Positions 43,418 through 44,602 of a stretch of 64,000 bases of DNA are shown one piece after another (position 1 is the first letter of the stretch; each line of letters begins with the position of its first letter). Source of the stretch: Sulfolobus sp. A20 (GTDB lineage Archaea; Thermoproteota; Thermoprotei_A; Sulfolobales; Sulfolobaceae); the NCBI RefSeq assembly GCF_001719125.1, contig NZ_CP017006.1:1054001-1118000 (forward strand), given 5' to 3'. The notes beneath the pieces were generated by a model. The model was not told the origin of the DNA. It was given only the letters and a program-made list of their open reading frames with translations, and did no database searches. The position numbers and the translations under genes are program-made.

Positions 43418-44602
43418 ATGAAAATCAAGGAAATTGAACCTATACTTCTTACCCACAAAGAGAAGGGAAGTGCTACATGGGCTTCTAGTATGATTATAGT
43501 AAGACTAACGACAGATAATGGAATGGTAGGTTATGGGGAAGCAGTACCTACGTTGAGAATAATATCAGTATATAACGCTATAAAGCAGGTCGCAAAAGGA
43601 TATATAGGTAAGGAAGTTGAAGAGGTTGAAAAGAATTATCATGAATGGTATAAACAAGATTTTTATTTACCTAGATCATTTGAGTCTGTTACTGCTTTGA
43701 GTGCTGTTGATATTGCTTCTTGGGATGTTATTGGTAGGGAGTTTGGTTCTCCTATTTATAAGTTGTTTGGTGGTTTGTTTAGGGATAAGGTTCAAGTTTA
43801 CGCTAATGGTTGGTATGAGAATTGTGTTACTCCAGATGATTTTTATAATAGGGCTAAGGAAGTGGTTAAGATGGGTTATAGGGCTTTAAAATTTGACCCC
43901 TTTGGAGACTACTTCGACAATATTGATGAGAAAGGTTTAAGGGAAGCTGAGGAGAGGGTAAAAGCAGTGAGGGATGCAGTAGGAGAAGAGGTAGAAATAC
44001 TAATAGAACACCACGGAAGATTCAACGCAAACTCAGCAATAAAAATAGCAAAAAGACTAGAAAAATACAACCCAGGGTTCATGGAAGAACCAGTACACCC
44101 AGAAGACATACAAGGACTAAAAAAATACAGAAAAAACACAAACCTAAAAATAGCACTAGGAGAAAGAATATTGAGTCTAAAGGAAGCGATGTTTTATATA
44201 AATGAAGGTGTAAATATTTTACAACCTGATATAACTAATATTGGTGGTGTTACGATAGCCAGTAAGGTGGTCAAATTAGCTGAGTCTAATGACGTGGAAA
44301 TAGCTTTTCATAATGCATTTGGCTCAATTCAAAATGCAGTTTCCTTACAATTAAGTGCAGTTACACCTAACCTATATCTATTAGAGAACTTTTATGACTG
44401 GTTCCCCCAGTGGAAAAGAGATCTAGTATTTAACGGAACTCCAGTTGAAAATGGATATGTTAATGTTCCAAACAAACCTGGCATAGGCGTAAGCGTTAAT
44501 GAAAAGTTAATAGAAGAACTAAGAGCAGAGCCTACTCCACTAGAAGTCAAAGAAGAACCCGTGTGGGTAGTCAAAGGAACGTGGAAGAGTTATGGTGTCT
44601 AA
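43418..44602 (+). CDS. gad: gluconate/galactonate dehydratase
   Basis: Enolase-superfamily enzyme of 394 residues that turns gluconate (and galactonate) into 2-keto-3-deoxygluconate (or -galactonate). The N-terminal capping domain ends near 120. The barrel shows [13 protein letters not shown], the metal-ligand strand [19 protein letters not shown], the third ligand in IALGERIL, and FHNAFGS carrying the catalytic histidine. Codons 89-156 end almost only in G or T, whereas codons 192-251 end almost only in A or C, a synonymous mosaic described separately. Together with kdgA and kdgK it forms the core ED operon. Confidence 0.93.

What the first reader, a model, noticed from the sequence alone, without database searches (positions are those of the whole stretch)
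43682..44170. gad contains two adjacent blocks of opposite synonymous-codon bias
In codons 89-156, 64 of 68 codons end in G or T. In codons 192-251, 58 of 60 end in A or C and none ends in T; one of the two exceptions is the obligatory ATG. The 35 codons between are mixed. The protein sequence reads normally through both blocks, so the change is synonymous. Neighbouring genes show nothing like it. Strand-specific mutation, a recombination mosaic, or selection on mRNA structure (a G/U-rich segment followed by an A/C-rich segment) could produce it.
Basis: seen in the sequence. Interest (0 to 1): 0.7.

Follow-up and report, generated by a model that had tools for sequence, protein, structure and literature searches.

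The report
Strand-polar biased gene-conversion tract in gad
The odd codon blocks mark a stretch that this gene keeps copying back and forth with a distant sister gene elsewhere in the same archaeal chromosome, and the copying (or its mismatch policing) pushes silent sites towards G/T at one end and A/C at the other; the same signature appears in most copied stretches of this genome, which suggests a new form of biased gene conversion.

Summary
It is not peculiar to mRNA or to gad. The genome is Sulfolobus sp. A20. Both copies carry the same G/T block then A/C block, with the midpoint at 0.51 of the tract. Across the chromosome, repeat tracts cover 1.2% of the sequence but hold 80% of all such codon blocks. 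Of 55 independent identical tracts, 46 are keto-rich at the 5' end and amino-rich at the 3' end on either strand (about 9 SD above random); flanks, shifted windows and 29 E. coli repeat tracts show nothing like it. Best reading: long-running ectopic gene conversion with strand-polar keto/amino bias. The likeliest cause is the mismatch endonuclease EndoMS/NucS, whose Sulfolobus form cuts G/T, G/G and T/T but not A/C, A/A or C/C (PMC7736090). The tract is shown; the polarity is shown for this genome and illustrated in two others; the EndoMS cause is inferred. I found no earlier description, in open-access full text only.

The parts
43418..44602 (+). gad1, D-gluconate dehydratase gene (394 aa), first copy
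   Evidence: gluconate dehydratase is listed in the published ED-pathway table of strain A20 (PMC5127849)
43680..44170 (.). ectopic gene-conversion tract: 491 bp, 0 mismatches to gad2 at G000:C1:1747023-1747513
43679..43885 (+). keto (G/T) block, codons 88-156
   Evidence: score 53; K at third positions by tract decile 1.0, 1.0.82.94
43886..43975 (+). transition zone around the tract midpoint (logistic midpoint 0.51)
43976..44170 (+). amino (A/C) block, codons 187-251
   Evidence: score 53; K .06 in each of the last four deciles
43418..43679 (+). gad1 5' flank, outside the tract, ordinary codons; 46% aa identity to gad2
44171..44602 (+). gad1 3' flank, outside the tract, ordinary codons; 56% aa identity to gad2

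Best explanation
The interval is an ectopic gene-conversion tract shared by two ancient gad paralogues of Sulfolobus sp. A20. Repeated conversion over a long time keeps the tract identical, and each event favours keto (G/T) alleles on the top strand to the left of the initiating break and amino (A/C) alleles to its right. Silent sites therefore evolve to G/T at the 5' end and A/C at the 3' end of the tract, read on either strand. The most likely agent is EndoMS/NucS. After synthesis-dependent strand annealing, the new donor-sequence strand pairs with the recipient strand. Keto:keto mismatches (G/T, G/G, T/T) are cut and the event aborts; amino:amino mismatches (A/C, A/A, C/C) escape and are inherited. 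Right of the break only A/C donor alleles then pass on the top strand, and left of it only G/T alleles. Shown: tract identity, edges, polarity, genome-wide recurrence. Inferred: break positions spread through the tract, the annealing route, and EndoMS as the agent.
For: Exact 491-bp identity with sharp edges into 46% and 56% identical flanks. The same organisation in other pairs, e.g. an aminotransferase pair. Tracts cover 1.22% of the genome but hold 79.5% of block bases; 41 of 55 blocks lie mostly in a present tract. D = K(left half) - K(right half) is above 0 in 46 of 55 tracts; mean 0.089 against SD 0.0096 for random sets. At third codon positions 38 of 42 tracts are positive. It holds for near, far-direct and far-inverted repeats (13/14, 10/13, 22/28). 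K falls evenly along the tract.63 to .37 by decile (symmetrised), and flanks are flat. EndoMS gene present in A20. S. islandicus EndoMS cuts G/T, G/G, T/T and not A/A, C/C, A/C, T/C, A/G in Mg2+ (PMC7736090); NucS hinders homeologous recombination in M. smegmatis (PMC8228993). Simulation of annealing with keto:keto rejection gives the observed sign and a similar slope; no rejection gives none. E. coli, which has MutS and no NucS (my own knowledge), shows no such effect: 29 tracts, mean D -0.031. Normal-complexity K blocks at the listed K-run locus in 11 of 15 EndoMS-bearing and 1 of 14 EndoMS-lacking Sulfolobaceae genomes. K-to-M pairs with identical strings in both copies in G005 (aminotransferase) and G012 (cdc48-like AAA gene; another genus).
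Against: The agent was not tested directly. Some tracts are keto throughout on the coding strand (glcV, part of gdh), which needs breaks concentrated at one end. T over G in K blocks is 13:1 against 3.2:1 in background, more than a pure keto/amino rule predicts without a strong transversion bias. In the simulation the opposite sign results if invasion heteroduplex is retained in the recipient, so the sign depends on the assumed route, and the simulated slope is gentler than gad's near-step. A few block genes have no partner in the genome now (633086, 2293533, 1561093), nor does a Glu dehydrogenase in G005. The reversed M-to-K pattern is also frequent in other genomes; in G012 it straddles two tracts, in G018 it is unexplained. 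The EndoMS/no-EndoMS contrast is not corrected for phylogeny, was classified by eye, and has exceptions (G023 IS1, G010 TnpB). Noncoding tracts lean the right way but weakly (9/13).
Confidence: 0.62

Rival explanations
1. Recombination-associated mutagenesis: single-stranded 3' tails formed on both sides of breaks are deaminated (C to T, A to G) on the exposed strand, giving G/T left and A/C right, as in break-associated mutation showers.
For: Predicts the same polarity and the strand switch in the middle of the tract; high growth temperature favours deamination (general knowledge).
Against: It changes bases by transition only. At four-fold sites in K blocks A+G falls to 8% from 50% in background, and in M blocks C+T falls to 10%, so transversions are also directional. 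EndoMS can itself cut U/G mismatches (PMC7736090). No such effect in E. coli repeats.
Confidence: 0.18
2. Biased gene conversion with this polarity, but the bias comes from another factor: short-patch mismatch processing of the kind seen in S. acidocaldarius recombination, strand-exchange proteins, or polymerase proofreading, not EndoMS.
For: Localised strand removal at mismatches during recombination is reported for S. acidocaldarius (PMC4471258). An endoMS deletion in S. acidocaldarius did not raise the mutation rate, as discussed in PMC7736090.
Against: No other Sulfolobus activity was found whose substrate list divides so exactly into keto:keto against the rest.
Confidence: 0.13
3. Selection at the RNA or codon level (mRNA structure, tRNA supply, translation speed) in these genes.
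For: The blocks are most visible at third codon positions, and several affected genes belong to glucose metabolism.
Against: Blocks coincide with repeat tracts; orthologues lack them; RNA folding is ordinary; Leu first positions follow the rule; internal direct repeats of unrelated genes follow it.
Confidence: 0.03
4. Reverse causation: the codon blocks arose first for an unknown reason, made paralogues more alike, and so invited conversion.
For: Restricted codon choice raises nucleotide identity between paralogues.
Against: Edges of blocks and of identity coincide, including identical amino acids where flanks share 46-56%. Polarity is referenced to tract ends and midpoint.
Confidence: 0.03

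Closest known systems
Ectopic gene conversion / concerted evolution of paralogues
   Same: Identical internal tract with sharp edges between otherwise diverged paralogues
   Different: Ordinary cases homogenise without imposing a base composition; E. coli repeat tracts tested here show no such polarity
GC-biased gene conversion
   Same: Conversion acts like selection on silent sites and leaves a composition signature in converted tracts
   Different: The bias here is keto against amino on one strand and reverses in mid-tract; four-fold sites in the blocks become poorer, not richer, in G+C
EndoMS/NucS non-canonical mismatch repair and its barrier to homeologous recombination
   Same: The substrate list (G/T, G/G, T/T) matches the direction of the bias, and the enzyme is known to affect recombination between diverged sequences
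   Different: A composition footprint of this activity on genomes was not found in the papers searched
Break-associated strand-coordinated mutation clusters (kataegis)
   Same: Strand of change switches across the break
   Different: Those are transition-type new mutations; here transversion classes are directional too and the signature sits in homology tracts
Repeat-induced point mutation (fungi)
   Same: Composition change confined to duplicated DNA
   Different: RIP makes C to T changes on both strands without tract polarity; here strand-polar and mostly silent

Membership tests
Ectopic gene-conversion tract | Segment of near-identity between paralogues that are diverged on both sides | tested here: met
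   491 bp with 0 mismatches; flanks 46% and 56% aa identity
Ectopic gene-conversion tract | Orthologues in relatives lack the shared segment's signature, so it is lineage-specific | tested here: met
   29 orthologues without blocks; second gad copies of other genus members are only 61-63% identical to gad1
Biased gene conversion | Systematic direction of base composition in conversion tracts against flanks | tested here: met
   46/55 tracts, about 9 SD; flanks and shifted windows flat
Biased gene conversion | Direction shown by following allele transmission in crosses | not testable with these tools
   Needs a conversion assay
GC-biased gene conversion | Enrichment of G+C at silent sites in tracts | tested here: not met
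   Four-fold sites: K blocks T .888, A .018; M blocks A .884, T .024; background A+T .76
EndoMS/NucS-driven bias | EndoMS gene present in the genome | tested here: met
   G000:C1:1876037-1876363(-), E 3.4e-33
EndoMS/NucS-driven bias | Signature absent where EndoMS is absent | tested here: inconclusive
   E. coli negative; Sulfolobaceae 11/15 against 1/14, Fisher p = 0.0005, but not corrected for phylogeny and with exceptions
EndoMS/NucS-driven bias | Bias lost on deletion of endoMS | not testable with these tools
   Experiment proposed
Kataegis-type deamination cluster | Changes limited to transitions on the exposed strand | tested here: not met
   Purine share at four-fold sites falls to 8% in K blocks, which needs directional transversions

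The most novel reading that the evidence does not exclude
In organisms that use EndoMS/NucS in place of MutS/MutL, ectopic gene conversion is strand-polar and keto/amino-biased strongly enough to saturate silent sites. Each conversion tract then carries a readable record of its edges and of where its breaks start: a new class of biased gene conversion and a genomic footprint of EndoMS activity.
Probability: 0.55. Interest if true: 0.9.

Novelty: new variant of a known kind. Interest (0 to 1): 0.82.

Why it matters
Biased gene conversion is usually thought of as favouring G+C. A bias that favours G/T on one strand and A/C on the other, reversing in the middle of each tract, would be a different rule and points to a specific enzyme. 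It would let one read past recombination (tract edges, break positions, orientation) straight from codon usage, offer a way to ask what EndoMS does to recombination intermediates in living cells, and warn that extreme local codon bias in EndoMS-bearing microbes need not mean selection on translation or foreign origin.

Tried and rejected
mRNA structure: ordinary folding energy. Pattern shared by all homologues: no. Transition-only hypermutation: four-fold sites contradict it. K-gap-M against M-gap-K pattern counts across relatives as a clean test of polarity: weak in the first form, and in the longer form clear in A20 (48 against 4) but confounded elsewhere because adjacent tracts create M-to-K junctions. 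K-run counts per genome as a measure: confounded by Thr/Ser-rich and tandem-repeat proteins, so the listed locus of each genome was read individually instead. Named genome search with gad: found only distant relatives; the window's own genome is left out there. Mao and Grogan 2012, on mismatch resolution in S. acidocaldarius recombination, was not held.

Full report
WHAT WAS CHECKED. The gad gene is window 43418-44602 on the + strand. Codons 89-156 end in G/T in 64 of 68 cases and codons 192-251 end in A/C in 58 of 60. With +1/-3 scoring both blocks reach 53; the best score in any other ORF of at least 100 codons in the window is 16. None of 29 orthologues, 28 from Sulfolobaceae and one more distant, shows it. 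The genome, 2,688,317 bp in one contig, has the size of Sulfolobus sp. A20 (PMC5127849), sequenced with PacBio (150x) and Illumina (700x).

THE PATTERN IS GENOME-WIDE AND SITS IN DUPLICATED DNA. The whole chromosome was read in pieces and scanned. Similar blocks occur in glucose dehydrogenase (two copies), a glcV-like ABC ATPase (two), glcS-like binding proteins, an aminotransferase (two), an M1-type aminopeptidase (two), TusA-like genes (two), transposases and internal repeats of a large surface-type protein (names from my reading of the translations). Of the first 29 block genes, most have a paralogue that also bears blocks. gad itself has a second copy at G000:C1:1746761-1747960 with the same two blocks.

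THE REPORTED INTERVAL IS A GENE-CONVERSION TRACT. Aligned codon by codon, gad1 and gad2 are identical at every nucleotide from about codon 89 to 252 and diverged on both sides. As an exact match this is 1097680-1098170 against 1747023-1747513, 491 bp with no mismatch, which is window 43680-44170. Amino-acid identity between the copies is 46% before, 100% inside and 56% after the tract.

THE RULE. All near-identical repeat pairs were listed from exact 40-mers, with no reference to composition. For each tract, D is the G+T fraction of the left half minus that of the right half; it does not change if the strand is reversed. In 55 non-redundant tracts of at least 100 bp, D is positive in 46 by z-score (45 by raw value), and the mean of 0.089 compares with a standard deviation of 0.0096 for random sets of segments. 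At third codon positions 38 of 42 tracts are positive, mean 0.25. The G+T fraction falls evenly along the tract, from 0.63 to 0.37 by decile after symmetrising; 150-bp flanks give 0.004, and windows shifted by one tract length give about -0.02. Near direct, far direct and far inverted pairs all behave alike (13/14, 10/13, 22/28). gad is the clearest case: D 0.32, third-base keto fraction by decile 1, 1.82.94.38.56.06.06.06.06, logistic midpoint at 0.51 of the tract. Tracts of 60 bp or more cover 1.22% of the genome and hold 79.5% of the bases in blocks.

DNA LEVEL, NOT CODON LEVEL. In M blocks Leu goes to CTA (85%, background 18%) and in K blocks to TTG (66%, background 14%), so first bases move as well. 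Noncoding tracts lean the same way, 9 of 13, but weakly. The RNA of the gad tract folds no better or worse than synonymous controls.

MECHANISM. The conversion tract itself is shown. The direction of the bias needs a process that treats keto and amino bases differently, and each strand differently on the two sides of a break. Sulfolobus EndoMS fits: it cuts G/T, G/G and T/T mismatches and, with Mg2+, none of A/A, C/C, A/C, T/C or A/G (PMC7736090), and NucS is known in M. smegmatis to hinder recombination between non-identical sequences (PMC8228993). In synthesis-dependent strand annealing the new strand with donor sequence pairs with the recipient strand. Right of the break a donor G/T against a recipient A/C allele gives a keto:keto mismatch, which is cut; the reverse gives amino:amino, which survives. 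Left of the break the strands are swapped. A simulation with random breaks and this rule gives keto fraction falling from .84 to .16 by decile; without rejection the profile is flat; if invasion heteroduplex were kept in the recipient instead, the sign reverses. The sign therefore supports the annealing route but does not prove it. The gene is present in A20.

TESTS OF GENERALITY. E. coli K-12, chosen as a MutS-bearing, NucS-free control (from my own knowledge), has 29 repeat tracts in the regions fetched; mean D is -0.031 and 7 are positive. EndoMS is found in 16 of 31 Sulfolobaceae genomes and absent from six whole genera. Reading one listed K-run locus per genome, a normal-complexity coding block was found in 11 of 15 EndoMS-bearing relatives and 1 of 14 lacking it; the rest were low-complexity or tandem-repeat genes. 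This is suggestive only: the classes were assigned by eye, are phylogenetically clustered, and G010 also has a TnpB-like exception. Two individual cases outside A20 show the structure: an aminotransferase pair in G005 (2210253-2210502 and 2211658-2211907), and a cdc48-like AAA gene pair in G012, of another genus (566949-567216 and 621470-621713), both with identical printed strings in the two copies and K-to-M order. In G012 the apparent reverse order at 567117-567420 spans a stretch where the copies differ, so one tract ends in A/C and the next starts in G/T, as the rule says. A reverse-order locus in G018 remains unexplained.

WHAT DOES NOT FIT. glcV and part of gdh are keto along the whole tract on the coding strand. 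Some block genes have no partner today, and a Glu dehydrogenase with a long keto block is single-copy in G005; partners may have been lost, which was not tested. T exceeds G by 13:1 in K blocks against 3.2:1 in background. The steepness in gad exceeds the simulation. S. acidocaldarius lacking endoMS is reported not to be a mutator although its enzyme cuts the same mismatches (PMC7736090).

NOVELTY. Gene conversion between paralogues and biased gene conversion are known. A keto/amino bias that reverses within each tract, or a composition footprint of EndoMS, was not found in the open-access papers searched. Subscription papers were not searched, so prior description cannot be excluded.

Noticed in passing
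G000:C1:1367837-1368898 and 1540614-1541675: Two glcV-like ABC ATPase genes, identical in protein over 353 aa, with G/T at nearly every third position of codons 1-337 and no A/C half: the most extreme block in the genome, and an exception to the K-to-M gradient.
   Followed up: partly
G000:C1:633086-634675: Radical-SAM-like gene with K (49-165), M (221-251) and K (329-406) blocks but no block-bearing partner in the genome; possibly a fossil of tracts whose other copy was lost.
   Followed up: no
G000:C1:1040158-1043073: Large secreted-type protein (971 aa) whose two A/C-rich blocks coincide with 204-bp internal direct repeats.
   Followed up: partly
G012:C1:566949-567420 and 621266-621713; G020:C1:616877-617348 and 671383-671629: Pairs of cdc48-like AAA ATPase genes with shared K and M blocks in another genus; G020 has the size I recall for S. 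acidocaldarius DSM 639.
   Followed up: partly
Sulfolobaceae genomes G000-G030: EndoMS/NucS is patchy within one family: present in 16 of 31 genomes, absent from six whole genera.
   Followed up: partly
K and M blocks genome-wide: At four-fold sites T:G is about 13:1 in K blocks and A:C about 11:1 in M blocks, against about 3:1 in background; the keto/amino rule alone does not explain this.
   Followed up: no
window 43680-44170 (protein): Inside the tract gad1 is less like its nearest orthologue (75%) than in its flanks (86% and 84%), as if the tract's protein evolves faster or carries gad2 history.
   Followed up: no
E. coli K-12 repeat tracts (L230-L244): Mean D is slightly negative (-0.031, z about -2.4).
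   Followed up: no
G018:C1:1178869-1179172: A strong M-to-K block pair with no partner seen, opposite to the rule.
   Followed up: no
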